Origin: Opitutus sp. ER46
GTDB taxonomy: Bacteria > Verrucomicrobiota > Verrucomicrobiia > Opitutales > Opitutaceae
Length of the DNA stretch: 64,000 nucleotides
Assembly (NCBI RefSeq): GCF_003054705.1
Contig: NZ_QAYX01000025.1
Span: forward strand, 434,001-498,000
Reading direction: 5' to 3'
The notes below the pieces were generated by a model that had not been told where the DNA came from, made no database searches, and was given only the letters and a program-made list of their open reading frames with translations. The position numbers and the translations under genes are program-made. Of this stretch, positions 19,095 through 27,919 are shown piece after piece (positions within the stretch are counted from its first letter, which is position 1; every line of letters begins with the position of its first letter).

Positions 19095-19194
19095 ACGAGG
19101 GCTGCAATTATAAAAGGCCGGGCGCCAATGCCTAAGGGAGATAATGTCCAGATACGCGGAATAATGTCCGGATACTTTGGAATAATGTCCGGAT
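19095..19194 (+). repeat. Lead + triple 15-mer element, copy 1
   Basis: It starts with the 20-base lead at 19095-19114 (ACGAGGGCTGCAATTATAAA), then after ~26 bases has three direct repeats of ATAATGTCCGGATAC: 19141-19155 (one change), 19161-19175 and 19182-19194 (13 bases retained). The same arrangement recurs in the same orientation at 27817-27919. A TG-start terminus followed by several ~15-20-base internal repeats resembles an end of an IS21-family element, but no transposase and no inverted right end is in the window. The IS21 link is an inference. Confidence 0.7.
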
Positions 19195-19218: not shown

Positions 19219-19848
19219 TCAGCGGCCGCGGGTCGCGGGTTGTGCACTACTCGCCCAGCGGGAGAAGAGCCACGCGGCGGCCGTGCCGAGGACGAGGCCG
19301 ACCAGGGTGTCGGCGCCGGTGTGCTGTCGCAGCGCGAGGATCGAGACTAGGATCGTGACCGCCCAGGCGGAAACCAGGATGGTGCAGCCGGGAGACGAGC
19401 CGCGCGCATGCCGGCCACAGATGCCGTAGGTCGCGAAGATGGTGAGCGCCGAATGGAGGCAGGGCAGGCAATTGTTGGGGCCGTCCACCCGCTCGTAAAA
19501 GAAGGCGAGATACTCGGGCACGCGGCTCGGATCGGGACGGGCGCAGGCCGTGGGAAAGAGCAGGAAGGTGATCCATCCCACCGCGGCCATGCCCAGCAGG
19601 ACGACGGCGAAGCGTCGCACGGAACCAAGCTCCCGCAACGTGAACCACGGTAACGCGAGCAGCGCGAAGAGCGACAGGTACGGCCAGAGCCACTCGGGAT
19701 TGAACGGCACCAGGTCCCAAGACCAGCAATGCTCGCGCGTCACGGCCCGGGCCGCCCCGAGCCCCTGGGTGCCGTGGTACATGACGGTGGCGATGAGCCC
19801 GACGGTGCCACCATAGACCAAGCGGATCGTGAGCTCGCGCGCCTTCAT
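19219..19848 (-). CDS. PAP2-family membrane phosphatase (Aur1-like type)
   Basis: A 209-residue protein with about five or six membrane helices. Phosphatase motifs are NNCLPCLHSA (His132) and RQHTGADTLVG (Arg174, His176, Asp180), corresponding to the second and third PAP2 motifs in the arrangement of inositolphosphotransferase-like enzymes. It probably removes or transfers a phosphate on a lipid at the inner membrane. Its ATG overlaps the stop of the metallo-hydrolase gene by four bases (ATGA), so it is the last gene of a four-gene coupled operon starting at 22587. The substrate is not deducible. Confidence 0.82.
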   Translation of the reverse strand: MKARELTIRLVYGGTVGLIATVMYHGTQGLGAARAVTREHCWSWDLVPFNPEWLWPYLSLFALLALPWFTLRELGSVRRFAVVLLGMAAVGWITFLLFPTACARPDPSRVPEYLAFFYERVDGPNNCLPCLHSALTIFATYGICGRHARGSSPGCTILVSAWAVTILVSILALRQHTGADTLVGLVLGTAAAWLFSRWASSAQPATRGR

Positions 19849-20666
19849 CGCATCGGGCTCAGCTGGTTGAGCCGCGCGGCAACGCCGACGTCGTGGCAGG
19901 CGTGCAGTTCGTATTCACCCCGGGCATGCAGGGCGCGCAACCGGCCGACGGTCTGTCGGTACGCCCGACGATCCCACTGCAGCGCCATCGCAACCGGGAG
20001 GGGCTCAACGCCGTCGGTGATCTGGCACGCGCGCCAGTACGCATCGGCGGCATAGAGCAGCCGGCGGCCGCCCAGCGCGAAGCTGATGCCGAGCTGGCCC
20101 GGCGCGTGGCCGGGCAGATGCACCAGCCCGACGCTGCCATCGCCGAAGAGGTCGAATGTGGCCGAGGCGGAGGCTCGGCCTTCGAAAGCGCGCGCCGGCA
20201 CCAACCGGGCACGCTCCGGCAGCCAGTCGGGGACCGGATCGGCGAGAAACGCCGCCCGGACCTGGCGCCACGCGGGCAGCGCCCGGAGCGGCCGCAGCGC
20301 CTCCTCGTGGTGGTGAATCGTGGCCTGCGGAAATTCTGCGAGTCCACCCACGTGGTCGGCGTGGAAGTGGGTCACGATAAGGTGGCGGACCTCCCCGGCG
20401 GGAATGCCCGCGGCGGTGAGCGCCGCCGCCGCGGAGCCCGCCTCCTGGACCGGCGTGGACCAGCGGTACAACCGCGCGGGAAAGCGGCGGGTGGCGGCGT
20501 GAAACCGACCGCCGTATCCGGTATCCACCAACACCCAGCCTTCCCGGGTATGATGCAGGGCGAAGAACACCGCGGGGAAGCGCTCCAGCCGCCACGTGCG
20601 GCGGTCGACCATGGCCAGCAGTTGCCGGCACGAGCCGCCTTCGAAGGCCCGGATGGCGTCGATCAT
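19845..20666 (-). CDS. MBL-fold metallo-hydrolase
   Basis: A 273-residue metallo-beta-lactamase-fold hydrolase. The metal motif THFHADH (His100, His102, Asp104, His105) is complete; later ligands are the His in LPGHAPGQ and Asp in YAADAYW. The overall pattern is close to lactonase or thioesterase-like MBL proteins. There is no signal peptide, so it is cytoplasmic. The start ATG at 20666 overlaps the ketoacyl synthase stop (ATGA), and its stop overlaps the PAP2 start. Context suggests it hydrolyses a thioester, lactone or ester of the product of that synthase; this is inference. Confidence 0.85.
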   Translation of the reverse strand: MIDAIRAFEGGSCRQLLAMVDRRTWRLERFPAVFFALHHTREGWVLVDTGYGGRFHAATRRFPARLYRWSTPVQEAGSAAAALTAAGIPAGEVRHLIVTHFHADHVGGLAEFPQATIHHHEEALRPLRALPAWRQVRAAFLADPVPDWLPERARLVPARAFEGRASASATFDLFGDGSVGLVHLPGHAPGQLGISFALGGRRLLYAADAYWRACQITDGVEPLPVAMALQWDRRAYRQTVGRLRALHARGEYELHACHDVGVAARLNQLSPMR

Positions 20667-21643
20667 AGGGTGATCAATGCCGCCGCCTGGGTGTAGCCCG
20701 CGGCGGTGCCGACGAGCAGCACCGGCGCTCCCGGGGCGAGCTGGCGGCGCACGCGGTTCAGGACGAAGGGAATGCCCGCGGCGACCACGTTGCCGTGTTC
20801 CGCGACCGACACGTGAAAGCGGGCCGGCGGCACGCCCAGCCGCCGGCGCATGAACTCCAACGCGGGCCCCGATGCCTGGTGGGGCACCACCTCGAGGCCA
20901 TCGAGGGTACGGCCGGCGCGGGCGAGCACGCGGGTGAGCATGGGCGGGAACAACTTGCTCGCGAGCCGGTGCACCGCCTTGCCATCCATGTGAAACTGAT
21001 ACGCCGCGTGCTCCGCCGGCGTGTAGCGGAACGGCGGAATCCGGTGGCCGCCGGCGCGGACTTCGCACAGGTGTGCGCCCTCGGCATAGGTCTCGAAGGC
21101 AAACTCGCAATCGACGGGCTCGTCGCGGGCCCCGAGCACAAAGGCCGCGGCGGCATCGCCCATCAGGCACGCGCTTTCGGGTTCATCCCAGTTTACGCCC
21201 TGCAGTGGGGTCTCGACGCAGACCACCAGGGCGGTGCGAGCCGCGCCGGTGGCAAACAGTCCGTTGACCACGTTCAGCGCCGCCACAAAGCCGAGGCAGC
21301 TGGCGTGCACGTCCAAACTCGGGATGCCCCGGGCCTCGGCCCCGAGGGTCTCCTGCACGAGGGCCGCGTTGCACGGGATCGGCTGTTGCACGCAGAGACT
21401 GGCATCGACGATCAGGTCGACGTCCGCCAGCGACTTGCCGGCATCGGCGAGCGCGCCGCGGCAGACCTTGACGGTGAGTTCGCGACTCTCGGCGGGGCCG
21501 GAGCACTGGTGCCGCCGCCAGACGCCGGTGTGGTCTGCGGTCCATCCCGGCTCCAGTCCCAGGCGCTCGTCCAGCTCCTGCGCGAGCACCTGCGTCTGCG
21601 GCAGGGCGCCGTGTGATCCAAGAATGCGGAAGTACTGCTTCAT
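20663..21643 (-). CDS. 3-oxoacyl-ACP synthase III family protein
   Basis: A 326-residue thiolase-fold condensing enzyme. The catalytic triad is readable: Cys116 in VHASCLGF, His255 in VPHQAS and Asn285 in EHGNVVAAG. It resembles FabH/OleA-type enzymes that condense two acyl groups or prime a chain. Primary-metabolism FabH normally sits with other fab genes; here the neighbours are a short-chain reductase, a metallo-hydrolase and a PAP2 protein, so a specialised lipid is likely. The start ATG overlaps the reductase stop (ATGA). Confidence 0.88.
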   Translation of the reverse strand: MKQYFRILGSHGALPQTQVLAQELDERLGLEPGWTADHTGVWRRHQCSGPAESRELTVKVCRGALADAGKSLADVDLIVDASLCVQQPIPCNAALVQETLGAEARGIPSLDVHASCLGFVAALNVVNGLFATGAARTALVVCVETPLQGVNWDEPESACLMGDAAAAFVLGARDEPVDCEFAFETYAEGAHLCEVRAGGHRIPPFRYTPAEHAAYQFHMDGKAVHRLASKLFPPMLTRVLARAGRTLDGLEVVPHQASGPALEFMRRRLGVPPARFHVSVAEHGNVVAAGIPFVLNRVRRQLAPGAPVLLVGTAAGYTQAAALITL

Positions 21644-22587
21644 CGGGAAGAGGTTTGCTGCCAGTGGCGCACGAATCGGTCGACGCCCTCGTCGAGCCCA
21701 ACGGCGGGCGGGCCGAGATCGTGGAGGGCCTTGCTGACGTCGAATGTTTTCGAATACGCAAACACGCTAACGCCGAACCGCGTGAGCGGCGGTTCGCCGA
21801 GGAAGGGGAGCGCGCCGTACACCGCCTCGATGGCGGTGGCGAAGGCCATGGCGCGCCCGACCGGCACCTTCCGGCGGGGGGCCGGCAGGTGCAGCCGGGC
21901 GAATACCGTCCCGAGAAACTCGAGGATGGGCACCGGCTGGTTGTTGGTCAGAACGTACAGACCCGAGGCCCGCGTTTCCACGATCCGCAGCAGGTACGCG
22001 ACGAGCGTCTCGATGTAGATCAGGTCGCCCCAGACCGGTTGGTCCGACTCGATCAGCGGCAGGCGGCCCGCCGCAGCGGCGCGCAGGATCCGGGGGAAGA
22101 CGACGGTGTCCCCCGGACCGAACACCGCCCGCGGGCGCACGATGCACCAGGAACCACGGTAGGCCTGCACGACGCGCTCGGCCTCCCGCTTGGTCTCGGC
22201 GTAGGTGTTGATCGGGTGCGGCGGCAACGGGCTGGCCTCCGTCAGCCCGAACTGGTGCGACTGGTCGTACATCACGGCCGTCGTCGAAAGGTGCACGAGA
22301 TGCGGCCGGCCGTGGCGCTCGCAGAAATCCACCACGTGGCGGGTCGCCTCGACATTCTGGCGCTCAAATTCCCGGCGCGTGCCCCAGGGCGAGGAGCGCG
22401 CGGCGGCGTGAAGGACGACGTCCGGCGCAAACTCAAAATCGCAGCCGGCGGTGAGGTCGCCCGGGACGTAGCCGGGGGCGGCGAGCGGGCGCCGGCCCGT
22501 GGCCAGGACTTCGTGCCCCTGGCGCGCGGCGGCCTGCCACACGGCGCCACCGATGAAACCAGACGCTCCGGTGACCAGAATTTTCAT
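21640..22587 (-). CDS. NAD(P)-dependent epimerase/dehydratase (3-beta-HSD/OleD-like)
   Basis: A 315-residue extended short-chain dehydrogenase. The cofactor motif is GASGFIG (residues 7-13) and the catalytic pair is Tyr129/Lys133 (NTYAETK), with STTAVMY supplying the Ser/Thr. Members of this group reduce beta-keto or sterol-like substrates (for example OleD). It is the first gene of the coupled operon reductase - ketoacyl synthase - MBL - PAP2, so it may reduce the synthase product. The ATG at 22587 directly precedes the Rossmann strand; the longer open frame upstream is non-coding in style. Confidence 0.87.
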   Translation of the reverse strand: MKILVTGASGFIGGAVWQAAARQGHEVLATGRRPLAAPGYVPGDLTAGCDFEFAPDVVLHAAARSSPWGTRREFERQNVEATRHVVDFCERHGRPHLVHLSTTAVMYDQSHQFGLTEASPLPPHPINTYAETKREAERVVQAYRGSWCIVRPRAVFGPGDTVVFPRILRAAAAGRLPLIESDQPVWGDLIYIETLVAYLLRIVETRASGLYVLTNNQPVPILEFLGTVFARLHLPAPRRKVPVGRAMAFATAIEAVYGALPFLGEPPLTRFGVSVFAYSKTFDVSKALHDLGPPAVGLDEGVDRFVRHWQQTSSR

Positions 22588-22757
22588 GGGTGGGGCAGGA
22601 CGTGAAGGGGAGGATTGGATACGGAGGCGGGACGGGGGCCGAGTTAGCGGAAACGCGGAAAAGCGGTCAAGGTGATGGGCCGTCGACAATTTCGATGCGT
22701 GCCATCGGCAGTTTCGATTAGCGCGCCGCGCCCCGGATCGTCTACGGTGGCGGCCGC

Positions 22758-23891
22758 ATGCACGTCCTGGTCCTCGGTTCCCGCGCGCCCATCGCCGCCG
22801 ATCTCGCCCGCGCCCTTGCGGCGGCCGGGCACCGGGTGTGGCTCGCCGACAGTGCGTGGGTGCCGGTTGCGGGAGGAGTTGGCGGCGTGGCGGGGCACGT
22901 GCGGCTGCCGGCCCCCCGGAGGCAGTTTGGGCTGTTTCGGCGGCGCCTCGCCGAACTGTGTGCCGCACGGGCAATCGACGTGGTGATCCCGGTGTCGGAG
23001 GAGGTCTTCTGGCTCACCGCGGCGGCGGATGCGTTGCCCGCGGGCACGCAGGCGCGGACGAGTTCGCTGGCCGTGCTGGCCGAGCTGCATGACAAGGCGC
23101 GGTTCGCGGGGCTGGCGGCACAACTGGGGTACGGCGCCGAAACGAATGTGGAACTGCGTTCCGCGGCTGACCTGGCGGCCGTGGCAAATCCGGAGTCGTT
23201 CGTCTTCAAGCCCGTGTTCTCGCGCTTCGCTTCCCGGGTGTTGATTCGACCTTCGCGCGCGCGCGTCGCGCGGCTGCGGCCAAGTGCCGCCGATCCGTGG
23301 CTGGCGCAGTCGTTCGTGGCCGGTCGGGAACTCTGCGCCTACAACGTGGCGGACCGCGGCCGGCTGCTGCTGCACGTGGCGTATGAGCCCGCCTTCCGTT
23401 TCGGGGTCGGCGCGAGCGTCTACTTCTCCCCCGTGACCAGCGCCCCCCTGCGCCTGCTCTGTGAACGGTTCATCGCGGCGACGGGGTTCACGGGGCAGAT
23501 CAGCTTCGACGTGATCGACGCGGGCGATCGATTGGTGGCGCTGGAGTGCAATCCCCGCGGAACCAGCGGGGTCCATTTGGCGGTTCAGGCGCCGGACGCG
23601 CTCGCGGCCGCGCTGTTGGGCGAGGCGGGGCCGGTGGGGCCAACGACGTTCATGCCCGAGCCGCGCATGCTGCTCCTGCCGCTGCTGTTGCAGTCACCGG
23701 GACTGGTCCTGAGGGCGCGCGGGCGCGATGCCCTGGCCGGGGCGCGGGACGCGCTGGCGGTCGCGGGCGTCTCGCCTGGGCGGCAGTTGGGCGCGTTGGC
23801 GGAGATGGCGGTGCGCGCGCTTGGCGCCGGGCTGGGCCTGACGCGGGCAACCACCGCCGACATCGAGTGGAACGGAGAGGAAATCGCGTGA
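22758..23891 (+). CDS. ATP-grasp domain protein
   Basis: A 377-residue protein with an N-terminal pre-ATP-grasp Rossmann part (MHVLVLGSRAPIAADLARAL) and an ATP-grasp fold. ATP- and metal-binding elements are visible as SFVFKPVFSRF, GRELCAYNV and ALECNPRGTSG (Glu and Asn for Mg). Such enzymes ligate a carboxylate to an amine or thiol. It is divergent from the reductase operon (170-base spacer) and its stop overlaps the GTG of the acyltransferase-like gene (GTGA), so these two are coupled. The substrates are unknown. Confidence 0.82.
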   Translation: MHVLVLGSRAPIAADLARALAAAGHRVWLADSAWVPVAGGVGGVAGHVRLPAPRRQFGLFRRRLAELCAARAIDVVIPVSEEVFWLTAAADALPAGTQARTSSLAVLAELHDKARFAGLAAQLGYGAETNVELRSAADLAAVANPESFVFKPVFSRFASRVLIRPSRARVARLRPSAADPWLAQSFVAGRELCAYNVADRGRLLLHVAYEPAFRFGVGASVYFSPVTSAPLRLLCERFIAATGFTGQISFDVIDAGDRLVALECNPRGTSGVHLAVQAPDALAAALLGEAGPVGPTTFMPEPRMLLLPLLLQSPGLVLRARGRDALAGARDALAVAGVSPGRQLGALAEMAVRALGAGLGLTRATTADIEWNGEEIA

Positions 23892-25006
23892 ACGCCGATC
23901 TCGGCACCGAGGCGTCGTGGCAGCGGTTCCTCACCGCCGGGTTGCTGGGCGGTGTTTCGCTGGTGAGCAACGCGGACGTGGAGGTGGCCGCGTGGTCCGT
24001 GGGGCAGGAGCCGGTGCCGCTCGTCATCAACCGCCGCGGCGACCGCGACTGCAGTTGGGTCGCCAGCTTGCGGAACGCCTACGGTCCCTATGCGCGGGCG
24101 GAGACGGACATCGTGAAGATGAGTCGGTGGGTGCGGCCGTGGTATCTCGCAGGCTCGCTCGCCGCGGAACGACTGCTCGCCGCGGGCGGGCTCGCGGGGG
24201 GCGCTTACCTCAACAACTGGATGCTCGCGACGAACCTGTATCGCACGGAGTTCTCCGCCGCTGCCGTGCTGGCCGGACTCGATGACCTCGTACGTGCGGT
24301 GGACGGACTGCCGATTGTGATCCGGTCGCTCACGCCGCCGCTGCATGCGACCTTGATCCAGGAACTCGCGGCGGCTGGCTTCCTGCTGCTGCCTTCGCGG
24401 CAGGTGTGGATCGTGGACGACCCGGCGTCGGGCGAATGGCGCACGCACCGGGATCCTCGCCGCGATCTCGAGCTGGCGCGGAGCACGGCGTCGCAATGGG
24501 CGTGGGTTCCGGAGGCGGACTTCACGCCGGAGGACTACGCGCAGGCGTGGCGGTTGTACCAGCGGCTGTACCGGGAACGTTATCCGCGTTTCAATCCAGA
24601 CTACACCGCCGAGCTTTTGCGGCTGGGGGCGGCCACGGGGTTCCTCGAGATCCACGGATTGCGCCGTGCGGAGGGCGGTCCCTTGGTGGGATTCGTGGGC
24701 ATGGCGCATCGCGGGGCGCAATCCTGCACGCCTTTGCTCGGATACGACATTGATGCGCCGGCGTCACTAGGGCTGTACCGCCGCTTGATGCTGCGGGCGT
24801 TTCTCACCTGCGAACGCCGGCAGTCCCGCTTTCACTGCAGCGCTGGCGCGGGAAGCTTTAAGTACAACCGGGGGGCGCGCGCCTCCGTGGAGTACGCGGC
24901 GGTCTGGGCCAATCACCTGCCGGCCTACCGGCGGGCTGGGTTGAGAACGCTCAGCCGCGTGGTCATGGCCAGCGTGGTGCCGTATCTCGAGACGCATCGC
25001 TGCTGA
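23888..25006 (+). CDS. GNAT-superfamily (BioF2/FemAB-like) acyltransferase
   Basis: A 372-residue protein starting at GTG 23888, overlapping the ATP-grasp stop. The C-terminal half (about 230-345) has the double-GNAT pattern with YQRLYRERYPRFNPDY, a hydrophobic strand LVGFVGMAHRG and FHCSAGAGSFKYNRGA, typical of the Acetyltransf_6 group. It may transfer an acyl or aminoacyl group to the product of its ATP-grasp partner. No signal peptide is present. The family is moderately clear, the function is unknown. Confidence 0.72.
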   Translation: MNADLGTEASWQRFLTAGLLGGVSLVSNADVEVAAWSVGQEPVPLVINRRGDRDCSWVASLRNAYGPYARAETDIVKMSRWVRPWYLAGSLAAERLLAAGGLAGGAYLNNWMLATNLYRTEFSAAAVLAGLDDLVRAVDGLPIVIRSLTPPLHATLIQELAAAGFLLLPSRQVWIVDDPASGEWRTHRDPRRDLELARSTASQWAWVPEADFTPEDYAQAWRLYQRLYRERYPRFNPDYTAELLRLGAATGFLEIHGLRRAEGGPLVGFVGMAHRGAQSCTPLLGYDIDAPASLGLYRRLMLRAFLTCERRQSRFHCSAGAGSFKYNRGARASVEYAAVWANHLPAYRRAGLRTLSRVVMASVVPYLETHRC

Positions 25007-25090
25007 TGTGTGGCTTGCCGGGAAGAGTGGCGGATGGCGTTCACGGGGGAGGGACTCCCCCTTGGTAACTTTACCGAGCGAGGGCGGTTG

Positions 25091-26407
25091 ATGATGGAGC
25101 ACATGATCACGCGCCTCTTCTCCTTCCTTGTTTTGATATCGGTGGCTTCGCTGGCGGCGGCGGCCGATGGTTCAACCTGGCTCGTGGCGGTCGACCTCTG
25201 GGGAAATCCGCGCTACCAGACGTTGAATCTGCAGCCGGCCACCCTGGACGGGCGTTTCGTGGGCGATCTCGATGGCGACCCGCTGCGCGGCGGCACCGCG
25301 GCGCAGGCGATCGAATTCACGGCCAGGAAAGGCGAAGCCACCTTCGTCTTCACCGGCACGGTCGACGGCGAACGCATCGCGGGCACCGCGCAGTTACCGG
25401 ATCCCAACGACGCCGGAAGACAGGTCCGCCATGCCTTCACCGCCCGGAAATTGCCGGCGCGGGCGGATTCCCTCCCCCAGCGCCACGAATATCTGCCGGA
25501 GGACTTCAGCAACGAATTCAGCCCGCATCGGGCGCCCGTGTTGACGGTGTGGCCGGGCGACACCGTTGCCACGAAGACGATCGATTCGGGAGGCCTCGAC
25601 GAGCATGGGCGCACCCGTTCCCTCTACGGCAATCCCCAGACGGGGCCCTTCTTCGTCATGACCGCGCAGCCGGGCGACACGCTGGCGGTGACGCTGGTCC
25701 GCGTCCGGTTGAACCGGGATTTTGCCGACAGCCTCGACGACCTTGTCGGACGCATCCGAACCCCTGCGCTGGCCTCCCGGGCCGCAGGGCTGGGCAAGCG
25801 CGTGCGGTGGAAACTCGATCGTGCGTCGGGGCTCGCGACGCCGGCCGCGGTAGATGCGCCGGGGTTGCAGGGCTTCGGCGTGCCGGTGCGCCCCATGCTC
25901 GGCGGCCTGGCGCTGGCACCGGGATTCGGCGCCGCACCGCTTTCGAGCGGCGACACCGGACGCACCGGCGGCAATATGGATTTCAACGGGGTTGTGGAGG
26001 GCAACACCGTCTACTTGCCGGTGCAGCAGCCGGGCGCCCTGCTCTACTTGGGGGATGCGCACGCCCTGCAGGGGGACGGCGAGACGACGCAATGGGCGCT
26101 GGAAACGTCCATGGACGTCGAATTCCGGGTCGAGGTGATCAAGGGGAAGTCGATTCAAACGCCGCGCGTGGAGTCGCCGACGGAGCTCATGGTGCTGGGG
26201 CAGGCGGGCTCACTCGACGACGCCCTGCGGCAGGCGACCGACGGCATCATCCAGTGGCTGCAAAAGGACTATGGCTTGTCGCTGTCGGAGAGCGCTCAGG
26301 TTCTGGGAACGTCGGTTCGTTACAGCGTGGCCAATCTGGCGGGCCGAAGTGTGGGAGTGGCCGCCAGGATCGCGAAGTCCGACCTGTCATCGCTCGAGCG
26401 ACGGTAG
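25091..26407 (+). CDS. Exported acetamidase/formamidase family protein
   Basis: A 438-residue protein with a signal peptide (MITRLFSFLVLISVASLAAAAD). A N-terminal ~110-residue beta-rich extension precedes the FmdA/AmdA fold, recognisable by VWPGDTVATKTIDSGG, TGPFFVMTAQPGDTLAV, GGNMDFNGVVEGNTVYLPV and PGALLYLGDAHALQGDGE. These enzymes hydrolyse short amides; the exported form with an extra N-terminal domain is less usual. Start codons at 25091, 25094 and 25103 all give the signal peptide. It follows the acyltransferase by 84 bases on the same strand. Confidence 0.85.
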   Translation: MMEHMITRLFSFLVLISVASLAAAADGSTWLVAVDLWGNPRYQTLNLQPATLDGRFVGDLDGDPLRGGTAAQAIEFTARKGEATFVFTGTVDGERIAGTAQLPDPNDAGRQVRHAFTARKLPARADSLPQRHEYLPEDFSNEFSPHRAPVLTVWPGDTVATKTIDSGGLDEHGRTRSLYGNPQTGPFFVMTAQPGDTLAVTLVRVRLNRDFADSLDDLVGRIRTPALASRAAGLGKRVRWKLDRASGLATPAAVDAPGLQGFGVPVRPMLGGLALAPGFGAAPLSSGDTGRTGGNMDFNGVVEGNTVYLPVQQPGALLYLGDAHALQGDGETTQWALETSMDVEFRVEVIKGKSIQTPRVESPTELMVLGQAGSLDDALRQATDGIIQWLQKDYGLSLSESAQVLGTSVRYSVANLAGRSVGVAARIAKSDLSSLERR

Positions 26408-26490
26408 CCACCTCTCATGCCCCGACGGTCTGCTCGGCCGCTGCGCGTCCCGTGACTCTTAGCTTGGGCTTCGCGCCGCCGACCGCCGCG

Positions 26491-26781
26491 CTAAGCCGCG
26501 CGGAGGAAATGGAGCATCTCGACGCTCGGGTCGCGCGCCCAAGGCGTGCGCTGGACCAAGCGAAAGCCGCCCGACGAATACATGCGTTGTGCCGGCGCGA
26601 AGAAGGGCAGGGCGAGCGTGGAAACGTGGATCTCCGCGACCTTTCTCTCCACGAGGCGGAGGAGAATTTCCTGTAGCTGGAGCCGGCCGTAGCCGAGTCC
26701 TTGATACGCGGGCCGGATGCAGTTGTGGCCGATGCGGGCAGATTGAGGGGCGGCGCGGGGGTCGAACGAGCCGAAGCCCAC
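26491..26781 (-). pseudogene. GNAT acetyltransferase remnant lacking its N-terminus
   Basis: Ninety-six residues from a GTG carry the C-terminal half of a GNAT domain: VGFGSFD, then RIGHNCIRPAYQGLGYGRLQ (acetyl-CoA loop pattern Q-x-x-G-x-G) and FFAPAQRMYSSGGFRLVQRT. A complete GNAT domain needs about 50-60 more residues before VGFGSFD. The frame upstream (toward 26880) reads AIHETL but then loses similarity and offers no start. The gene therefore looks 5'-truncated, perhaps by arrival of the neighbouring gene at 26898. Confidence 0.55.
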
Positions 26782-26897
26782 GAGCGTCTCGTGGATCGCG
26801 CTTCGGTGCTTCCGTGCAGGCGAGCCGACCGCGCGCCGCGGCCGAGACTGCCCTTTTCAGGCTCGTGCCGGCAGGGTTGGGGCGCGAGGCTCTCGCG

Positions 26898-27749
26898 ATG
26901 CGTTCGGTGCTGCTGCTGCTGCTCATGATTCCGGTGCCTGGTGCCGCCGCGACCGCTCCGGGGCTGGCGGATTCGGCGGCCGTCGGTCGCGGCCCGGTGG
27001 CGCCGAGCCCGCGGGCCGAGATCAAGCTGTCGGACGACCTCGTGCTCCGCGAAATCGGCGACGGCGCGTTCGTCGTCGCGCACCGATTCCCCGGGCTCTG
27101 CAACTCCGCGCTCGTCGAGATGGCGGATGGCACGCTGGTGCTCGCCGGGACCCCGTGCACCGCGGACGCGACGCGTGAGCTGCTGCGCTGGGCACGGGCG
27201 CGCTGGGGAGAGCGCCGCGTCGTCGCGATCAACAACGGCTATCATTACGACAATCTCGGCGGCAACGAGGCGCTCCTGGCCGCCGGCGTCGCGGTGTACG
27301 GCTCCGACCTGACGGTGCGGCTGCTCGCGGAACGCGGCGAGGCGACGCGTGCGCTCACGTTGCGGCTCATCGGCGGCGAGACCTCGCGGTGCTACCGGGC
27401 GCTCGCGGAACAGCGGTACCATGCGCCCGATCATGTGTTCCGCGCGGCCGACGGGCTGACGCTGATGTTCGGCGGCGAGCAGGTCCGGGTGATCTACCCC
27501 GGTCCCACGCAGGCGCCCGACAAGGTGCTCATCTATTTTCCCGCCCGGAAGCTCCTGTATGGCGGCTGCGCGCTGATCGGTGGCCCGCGGCTGGGCAACA
27601 TGGCGGAGGCCAACGTGAGCTCATGGCTGGCTGCGGTGCGCGATCTGCGCGCGCTCGCGGTCGAAGTCGCGATCCCGGCGCACAGCCCGAACCTCGCGCC
27701 CACCGTTCTCGCCAACACTGAAGCCCTCCTCGCGGCCGCCAGCCGGTGA
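26898..27749 (+). CDS. Exported MBL-fold protein with altered metal site
   Basis: A 283-residue protein with a signal peptide (MRSVLLLLLMIPVPGAAATA). The fold matches class B beta-lactamases: NNGYHYDNLGGNEAL (112-126) replaces HxHxDH, and IYPGPTQAPDKVLIYFP (199-215) replaces PGPGHTPDN. LLYGGCALIG holds Cys224, and IPAHSP holds His262. The Zn2-type ligands Asp118, Cys224 and His262 are kept, while two of three Zn1-type ligands are Gly114 and Gln205; His116 remains. This resembles the mono-zinc arrangement of subclass B2 without its asparagine. Beta-lactam hydrolysis cannot be claimed. Confidence 0.75.
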   Translation: MRSVLLLLLMIPVPGAAATAPGLADSAAVGRGPVAPSPRAEIKLSDDLVLREIGDGAFVVAHRFPGLCNSALVEMADGTLVLAGTPCTADATRELLRWARARWGERRVVAINNGYHYDNLGGNEALLAAGVAVYGSDLTVRLLAERGEATRALTLRLIGGETSRCYRALAEQRYHAPDHVFRAADGLTLMFGGEQVRVIYPGPTQAPDKVLIYFPARKLLYGGCALIGGPRLGNMAEANVSSWLAAVRDLRALAVEVAIPAHSPNLAPTVLANTEALLAAASR

Positions 27750-27816: not shown

Positions 27817-27919
27817 ACGAGGGCTGCAATTATAAAGCGCCGAGACGCAACGGCTAGCGGGATAATGTCCGGATACTCAGAATAATGTCCGGATACTCGC
27901 CCGGATAATGTCCGGATAC
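27817..27919 (+). repeat. Lead + triple 15-mer element, copy 2
   Basis: The identical 20-base lead (27817-27836) is followed by three perfect copies of ATAATGTCCGGATAC at 27862-27876, 27882-27896 and 27905-27919 (20- and 23-base periods). It has the same orientation as copy 1, 8.7 kb away, so the two copies bracket the accessory block. The spacers between repeats are only 5-8 bases. It lies between the 3' ends of the metallo-hydrolase gene and ptsH. Confidence 0.72.

What the first reader, a model, noticed from the sequence alone, without database searches (positions are those of the whole stretch)
19219..25006. Uncharacterised coupled cluster: reductase, ketoacyl synthase III, MBL hydrolase, PAP2, divergent ATP-grasp and GNAT
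Four leftward genes are joined by ATGA overlaps at every junction, and two divergent genes by a GTGA overlap, so stoichiometric co-expression is implied. The condensing enzyme has its full Cys-His-Asn triad and the reductase its Tyr-x3-Lys. The set resembles OleA/OleD chemistry, but OleB (alpha/beta hydrolase) and OleC (AMP ligase) are missing. A metallo-hydrolase, a lipid phosphatase and an ATP-grasp/acyltransferase pair take their place. This could make an undescribed acyl-amino or hydroxy lipid.
Basis: partly seen in the sequence, partly recalled or inferred. Interest (0 to 1): 0.7.

Follow-up and report, generated by a model that had tools for sequence, protein, structure and literature searches.

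The report
Widespread uncharacterised acyl-amino lipid gene cassette
Five of these six neighbouring genes travel together in bacteria of eight phyla, probably making a still unidentified fatty molecule joined to amino acids, while the sixth gene (PAP2) is a local passenger.

Summary
The six genes and their four-base overlaps are real. Five of them (ketosynthase KAS, reductase SDR, metallo-hydrolase MBL, ATP-grasp, GNAT-fold transferase) form a conserved cassette: all five are together in 69 of 80 ATP-grasp-anchored loci from eight phyla, while none of the partners is near 18 control ketosynthase genes. PAP2 is not part of it (near the cassette in 1 of 8 genomes). Most relatives add a TIGR02304 adenylate-forming ligase (63 of 80) and a Rieske oxygenase (62 of 80); the window lacks both. 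The ketosynthase is neither housekeeping FabH nor OleA; it groups with MxnB/CorB, which join two acyl chains, and lacks OleA's catalytic Glu. The 'GNAT' has the fold of aminoacyl-tRNA-dependent FemX/MprF/Sbb17 transferases. Best reading: KAS-SDR-MBL build and release a beta-hydroxy acyl scaffold; ATP-grasp and the Fem-like enzyme attach amino acid(s). The functional unit is well supported, the product is inferred. Rows listed by ten literature searches showed no description.

The parts
21640..22587 (-). SDR: extended short-chain reductase, OleD-like (predicted beta-keto to beta-hydroxy reduction)
   Evidence: PF01370 1.6e-30; best NCBIfam OleD 155.8 bits, cut-off 580; Y129 and K133 invariant in 60
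20663..21643 (-). KAS: thiolase-fold ketosynthase of the MxnB/CorB clade
   Evidence: CHN triad invariant in 73; tree; diagnostic columns; profile best MxnB 358 bits; fold top MxnB TM 0.92
19845..20666 (-). MBL: metallo-beta-lactamase-fold hydrolase (predicted thioesterase or lactonase)
   Evidence: PF00753 2.5e-20; H100-x-H102-x-D104-H105, H187 and D176/D208 invariant in 71
19219..19848 (-). PAP2 protein, overlapping MBL here but not conserved with the cassette
   Evidence: PF01569 3.7e-9; near the cassette in 1 of 8 genomes; window PAP2 finds 1 of 80 named loci, weakly (L059, 42 bits) and 0 of 7 unnamed ones
22758..23891 (+). ATP-grasp ligase, PRK06849-like (predicted carboxylate-amine ligase)
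   Evidence: 249.7 bits to PRK06849; K151, E263, N265 invariant in 84; profile reaches only AMdnB 7m4s in the PDB, E 1.3e-3
23888..25006 (+). tandem-GNAT transferase of the FemX/MprF/Sbb17 fold
22588..22757 (.). 170-bp divergent intergenic region, presumed to hold the promoters
   Evidence: gap; the sigma-70 consensus scan found no site there

Best explanation
It is a compact specialised-metabolite cassette made of two sub-modules. Sub-module 1 (KAS, SDR, MBL) builds an acyl scaffold: the MxnB/CorB-class ketosynthase joins two acyl (or beta-ketoacyl) thioesters taken from primary fatty-acid synthesis, the OleD-like reductase turns the beta-keto group into a beta-hydroxyl, and the metallo-hydrolase releases the thioester (or a lactone) as free acid. 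Sub-module 2 (ATP-grasp, Fem-like GNAT) attaches the head group: the ATP-grasp enzyme activates a carboxylate and forms an amide with an amino acid or amine, and the Fem/MprF-fold transferase adds a further aminoacyl group, probably from aminoacyl-tRNA. In most relatives an adenylate-forming ligase re-activates the acid and a Rieske oxygenase hydroxylates the product; this locus has neither. Shown here: the conserved unit, the enzyme classes, intact catalytic residues, and that the two sub-modules occur apart. Inferred: order of steps, substrates, product, and tRNA dependence.
For: Co-occurrence: 69 of 80 ATP-grasp-anchored named loci hold all five genes (68 of 80 with the window's proteins alone as queries), 50 of 80 all seven; 0 of 18 control KAS loci hold SDR, MBL, ligase, ATP-grasp, GNAT or Rieske hits. 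In the window's family 5 of 200 genomes, the own one included, have the ATP-grasp at E 1e-20 or better, and 5 of 5 have KAS, SDR, MBL and GNAT beside it. The five genes stand in 12 different arrangements among the 75 complete loci, so one inherited gene order does not explain the linkage. KAS clade with MxnB/CorB 96/95, apart from FabH 99/96 and OleA 100/100; position 258 is Ser in 29/29 and 2/2, Asn in 27/27 FabH, Gly in 12/12 OleA. Fem/MprF fold. Sub-modules apart: KAS-SDR-MBL with a GT21 glycosyltransferase and no ATP-grasp/GNAT in L040 and L045; ATP-grasp-GNAT-Rieske without KAS-SDR-MBL in L120 and, near a contig end, L075. MMPL-family gene overlapping the operon in L039.
Confidence: 0.45

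Rival explanations
1. FabH-like priming: KAS does an ordinary decarboxylative condensation of a special acyl-CoA with malonyl-ACP; the SDR reduces it; the GNAT-fold protein N-acylates an ATP-grasp-made amide or dipeptide with that chain (an N-acyl dipeptide, no tRNA).
For: CHN triad shared with FabH and no Glu base; window KAS alone scores FabH 4ryb highest; tandem-GNAT hits include acyl-CoA enzymes.
Against: KAS lies outside the FabH clade and with MxnB/CorB; FabH's Ser after the Cys (27/27) and Asn258 (27/27) are replaced in 29 of 29 cassette rows each; top fold hits of the transferase are tRNA-dependent.
Confidence: 0.27
2. An alpha-pyrone or related lactone: KAS fuses two beta-ketoacyl chains and the product cyclises as in myxopyronin; the MBL is a lactonase that opens or edits it; the ATP-grasp/GNAT pair decorates it.
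For: MxnB/CorB nest inside the cassette KAS diversity, next to the Chloroflexota members, 100/98; the five MBL proteins scanned score best against AttM AHL-lactonase, 62-78 bits, below its cut-off of 390.
Against: A pyrone needs no beta-keto reductase, yet SDR is present in 71 of the 72 named loci that have KAS.
Confidence: 0.13
3. An Ole-type olefin or beta-lactone pathway with replaced OleB and OleC.
For: SDR best matches OleD; an adenylate-forming ligase is present in most relatives.
Against: KAS lacks the OleA Glu (I/L/M/V in 29 of 29 against Glu in 12 of 12 OleA) and is a separate clade; genuine OleA is elsewhere in the genome, as is a closer OleD (380 bits at C18:184332). OleB and OleC were not searched for by name.
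Confidence: 0.06
4. Unrelated neighbours that happen to overlap.
For: Four-base overlaps are common in bacteria; PAP2 looks like such a passenger.
Against: 69 of 80 against 0 of 18 and 12 arrangements of the five genes.
Confidence: 0.02

Closest known systems
MxnB / CorB stand-alone ketosynthases (myxopyronin, corallopyronin)
   Same: Same clade, CHN triad, hydrophobic residue where OleA/PpyS have Glu, His-Gln-x-Ser and Cys-Leu-Ser/Gly-Phe motifs; MxnB joins two acyl chains (PMC5724707, passages seen; PMC4578411, part 1 of 3 read)
   Different: MxnB works with carrier-protein-bound chains of type I polyketide synthases; here no carrier protein is near and the partners are SDR, MBL, ATP-grasp and a Fem-like enzyme
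OleABCD hydrocarbon pathway (recalled)
   Same: Condense-then-reduce logic; SDR closest to OleD
   Different: No OleA base; ligase of another family (TIGR02304), absent in the window; OleB/OleC not searched for
MprF / FemX / Sbb17 aminoacyl-tRNA-dependent transferases
   Different: 9-13% identity in those rows; single soluble-looking protein of 372 aa; tRNA use untested
PqsABCDE alkylquinolone pathway (recalled)
   Same: KASIII-type enzyme plus an MBL-fold thioesterase and an acyl ligase
   Different: KAS profile scores PqsD 184 bits against MxnB 358; anthranilate enzymes not looked for
ATP-grasp amidoligase plus GNAT peptide-ligase pairs predicted by comparative genomics (recalled; the paper was not held)
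   Same: ATP-grasp beside a GNAT-fold peptide ligase
   Different: Linkage to a ketosynthase/reductase/MBL module was not seen in what I read here

Membership tests
Housekeeping FabH | Groups with FabH in a tree | tested here: not met
   Cassette plus Mxn clade 96/95, FabH clade 99/96; own FabH at C25:733706 scores 422 bits to TIGR00747 against 139 for the window KAS
Housekeeping FabH | His-Gln-Ala-Asn motif and Ser after the catalytic Cys | tested here: not met
   HQAS and Cys-Leu in the window; Asn 27/27 and Ser 27/27 in FabH
OleA | Glu that reaches into the partner's active site (E117 in Xanthomonas OleA) | tested here: not met
   Ile89 in the window, Glu in 12/12 OleA; role of Glu from PMC4578411, part 1
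OleA | NCBIfam PRK09258 over cut-off | tested here: not met
   70.4 of 285 bits
MxnB/CorB ketosynthases | Phylogenetic grouping | tested here: met
   96/95; within it MxnB/CorB are nearest to the Chloroflexota cassette KAS, 100/98
MxnB/CorB ketosynthases | Two acyl-binding tunnels meeting at the Cys | not tested
   Model made (pLDDT 94.7; TM 0.92 to MxnB) but pockets not measured
MxnB/CorB ketosynthases | Condenses two beta-ketoacyl thioesters | not testable with these tools
   needs an assay
OleD (NF042422) | Score over curated cut-off | tested here: not met
   155.8 of 580 bits
OleD (NF042422) | Tyr-x3-Lys reductase site | tested here: met
   Y129, K133 invariant in 60
AHL lactonase (AttM) | Score over curated cut-off | tested here: not met
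   62 of 390 bits
FemX/MprF-type transferase | Tandem-GNAT fold | tested here: met
FemX/MprF-type transferase | Uses aminoacyl-tRNA | not testable with these tools
   needs an assay
Seven-gene form of the cassette | TIGR02304 ligase gene in the cluster | tested here: not met
   no hit in the window; own genome best 52.5 of 251.9 bits on another contig; found in 63 of 80 named loci, one of them a remnant
Seven-gene form of the cassette | Rieske oxygenase gene in the cluster | tested here: not met
   no hit in the window or, with the L106 query, in the own genome; found in 62 of 80

The most novel reading that the evidence does not exclude
An undescribed, phylum-crossing lipid family in which an MxnB-type ketosynthase, without a dedicated carrier protein, fuses two primary-metabolism acyl chains into a branched beta-hydroxy acid that a tRNA-dependent, Fem/MprF-like enzyme and an ATP-grasp ligase then cap with amino acids; the head-group module can be swapped for a glycosyltransferase (L040, L045).
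Probability: 0.3. Interest if true: 0.8.

Novelty: new variant of a known kind. Interest (0 to 1): 0.6.

Why it matters
A small gene set kept together in 12 arrangements across eight phyla must make something that many unrelated bacteria find useful, yet no paper seen in the listings of ten searches describes it. If right, head-to-head acyl condensation, known from a few antibiotics and hydrocarbons, feeds a widespread class of amino lipids. It is testable in ordinary laboratory strains: Pseudomonas protegens FD6 (L089) and Paenibacillus castaneae (L106) carry all seven genes.

Tried and rejected
Six-gene unit: rejected, PAP2 is not conserved. OleA and FabH membership: rejected. The two genes missing from the window were sought in its genome: the ligase gives only a weak hit on another contig, the Rieske query none (an empty answer alone shows little). 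There, row L008, labelled FabH, is the same protein as L045_cassette (G200), so true FabH rows are 27; L004 gave no usable frame and was left out; 29 cassette rows are those under 70% identical to each other out of 73 aligned. Recurrent flank families were mostly shared within Pseudomonas or within Mesorhizobium; one transporter-like family occurs in 12 of 87 loci of mixed genera; none was followed. The PDB sequence search with the transferase profile gave nothing meaningful, so fold search was used; VIA-align is a second look at Foldseek's own matches. No phmmer hit in the PDB at 1e-8 for the MBL. Literature: searches were aimed at the gene set, 42 at amidoligases, 55 at MxnB. I saw listings only (for instance 15 of 351 papers), plus passages of PMC2649909 (nothing on this set) and the two ketosynthase papers cited.
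Full report
OBSERVATION. The six genes exist as described. From left to right: PAP2, MBL, KAS and SDR on the minus strand, joined by three ATGA overlaps, then 170 bp, then ATP-grasp and GNAT on the plus strand, joined by GTGA. Pfam cut-offs are passed by PAP2, MBL, KAS, SDR and GNAT; the ATP-grasp protein passes no Pfam cut-off. No NCBIfam cut-off is passed: KAS 253 of 402 bits (PRK07204), SDR 155.8 of 580 (OleD), ATP-grasp 249.7 of 406 (PRK06849), MBL 62 of 390 (AttM lactonase); PAP2 and GNAT match nothing there.

IS IT A UNIT? Three tests. (a) KAS-anchored, class-wide: 286 genomes, the own one included. Besides the own gene, five hits proved to be of this kind: G075 and G183 (56% identity), G167 (41%), G200 (34%, separated from FabH by the tree) and G136 (38% over part of its length; recognised by its motifs, not placed in the tree). 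SDR and MBL lie beside KAS in 4 of these 5, ATP-grasp and GNAT in 2 of 5; G136's KAS stands alone in a 20-kb stretch. More divergent members could hide among the roughly 30%-identical FabH hits, and the hit list was cut. (b) ATP-grasp-anchored, own family: 5 of 200 genomes, own included, at E 1e-20 or better, and 5 of 5 carry KAS, SDR, MBL and GNAT beside it. So the cassette is rare and patchy in the family, as an accessory pathway would be. (c) ATP-grasp-anchored, named genomes: 499 relatives, best 80 kept. All five genes are in the locus in 69 of 80, or 68 of 80 when only the window's own proteins are the queries; 6 of the 14 further queries' source loci are not among the 80. The 11 others are L061, L075, L101, L103, L105, L108, L110, L111, L112, L113 and L120; in L075, L101 and L108 the contig ends close to the match, while L105, L110-L112 and L120 (Legionella) truly lack KAS, SDR and MBL in about 10 kb on either side. 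Control: 20-kb stretches round 15 FabH genes of other genomes of the class and the own genome's three other KAS-like genes, searched with the same queries: 0 of 18 have SDR, MBL, ligase, ATP-grasp, GNAT or Rieske hits; one has an MMPL hit. The controls are all from the window's class. By record title the 69 loci come from Pseudomonadota, Verrucomicrobiota, Bacillota, Chloroflexota, Planctomycetota, Gemmatimonadota, Acidobacteriota (Holophagae) and Candidatus Melainabacteria (Obscuribacterales). Several are metagenome bins and could be mis-binned. The five genes stand in 12 arrangements (order and strand) in the 75 complete loci (69 named, 5 unnamed, the window); the two commonest hold 36 and 20. 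Keeping company while order changes is stronger evidence of joint function than one inherited operon.

THE FULL CASSETTE IS LARGER. Two more genes recur. One is an adenylate-forming enzyme over the TIGR02304 cut-off (513, 386 and 268 bits against 251.9 in the three members scanned), found in 63 of 80, one of these a remnant (L061). The other is a Rieske-domain oxygenase (PF00355), found in 62 of 80; 50 of 80 have all seven. The window has neither. A congener, G288 (L042), and a named Opitutaceae bin (L073) have the Rieske gene but no ligase. In the window's genome TIGR02304 reaches only 52.5 bits, on another contig, and the Rieske query finds nothing. So 'AMP ligase missing' is a local trait.

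PAP2. A Pfam PAP2 gene is near the cassette only in the window (1 of 8 genomes holding the cassette or its KAS part). With the window PAP2 as query, 1 of 80 named loci gives a weak hit (L059, 42 bits) and 0 of 7 unnamed ones.

KETOSYNTHASE. C116, H255 and N285 are invariant in 73 cassette sequences. A profile of 26 of them scores MxnB 358 and CorB 345 bits, FabH (4ryb) 289, PqsD 184 and OleA-type chains about 130-137 (which chains are OleA is recalled). The window protein alone scores FabH 4ryb slightly above MxnB (135.6 against 128.1), so the profile and the tree are what separate them. In a 71-row tree the 29 cassette rows and MxnB/CorB form one clade (96/95), 27 FabH rows another (99/96), 12 OleA rows a third (100/100); one row labelled FabH is the G200 cassette protein, and several cassette rows have long branches, so inner order is unsure. 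Residues agree: position 89 is I/L/M/V in 29 of 29 cassette rows and Val in MxnB/CorB, Glu in 12 of 12 OleA; position 258 is Ser in 29 of 29 and 2 of 2, Asn in 27 of 27 FabH, Gly in 12 of 12 OleA. At position 89 FabH rows also carry hydrophobic residues, so that column separates from OleA only. PMC4578411 (part 1 of 3 read) says that this Glu is the base in OleA and PpyS and that MxnB/CorB have Val there, their substrate having a more acidic alpha-carbon. PMC5724707 (passages seen) reports that MxnB joins two acyl chains and has two tunnels. The KAS model (pLDDT 94.7) matches MxnB best (TM 0.92), FabH close behind (0.91). No carrier-protein domain (PF00550) lies near the cassette in 8 of 8 genomes.

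OTHER SITES. In the aligned relatives these are invariant: MBL H100, H102, D104, H105, H187, D208 (71 sequences); SDR Y129, K133 (60); ATP-grasp K151, E263, N265 (84); Rieske C49, H51, C68, H71, H167, H172, D290 in L106 numbering (62). Their roles are recalled. Truncated or badly framed sequences were left out of these alignments by length.

TWO SUB-MODULES. KAS-SDR-MBL occurs without ATP-grasp/GNAT but with a GT21-type glycosyltransferase in L040 and L045 (L045 also has the ligase). ATP-grasp-GNAT-Rieske occurs without the others in L120 and, near a contig end, L075. In the window the two sub-modules are the two divergent gene groups, PAP2 aside. In L039 an MMPL-family gene overlaps the start of the operon, which may mean export of a lipid. 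Together these support a scaffold-building module plus an exchangeable head-group module.

MECHANISM. Proposed: acyl joining (KAS), beta-keto reduction (SDR), release (MBL), amide formation (ATP-grasp), aminoacyl addition (Fem-like), with ligase and Rieske steps in most relatives. Enzyme classes and linkage are shown; order, substrates and product are inference.

LITERATURE. Ten searches of the open-access library (eight aimed at this gene set) listed no paper that describes it; I saw listings, not all papers, and most subscription journals are not held. 'Not described' is provisional.

Noticed in passing
window 19138-19194 and 27859-27917; genome-wide: Short repeat GGAATAATGTCCGGAT in small tandem groups: 6 in the window at up to 3 mismatches against 0.23 expected, 88 places in the genome at up to 1 mismatch and 0 for the reversed control. 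Perhaps ends of a mobile element or an intergenic repeat family.
   Followed up: partly
L040:6271-12006 and L045:5117-10355: KAS-SDR-MBL beside a GT21-type glycosyltransferase (and a GT28-type one in L040) instead of ATP-grasp/GNAT; looks like a glycolipid version.
   Followed up: partly
L039:5520-8390: MMPL-family transporter gene overlapping the SDR start by 4 bases; candidate exporter of the product.
   Followed up: no
L160:9752-10945 (G136): Lone ketosynthase with the cassette-type motifs (Cys-Leu-Ser-Phe, His-Gln-Ala-Ser) and none of the partner genes within the 20-kb stretch.
   Followed up: partly
L105, L110, L111, L112; L068, L077, L113: A large ORF of one family lies in Legionella loci that hold only the ATP-grasp gene, and in two Pseudomonas loci and L113 beside the cassette; by its first residues it looks like a non-ribosomal peptide synthetase (recalled motif).
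   Followed up: no
L061: Pseudomonas locus with ATP-grasp, GNAT and Rieske genes and only a ligase remnant; KAS, SDR and MBL are absent, perhaps a decayed cassette.
   Followed up: no
window 19219-19848: The PAP2 protein keeps the last His-x3-Asp but seems to lack the usual Arg after Ser in that motif (motif recalled, read by eye), so it may be a divergent phosphatase or a phosphotransferase.
   Followed up: no
own genome G000:C22:233532-234554 and 30 other family genomes: A genuine OleA (over the PRK09258 cut-off) is in 31 of 31 family genomes searched, own included, so OleA seems general in this family and separate from the cassette.
   Followed up: partly
window 25010-27749: Downstream genes: an acetamidase/formamidase-family protein and another MBL-fold protein; no sign that they belong to the cassette.
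   Followed up: no
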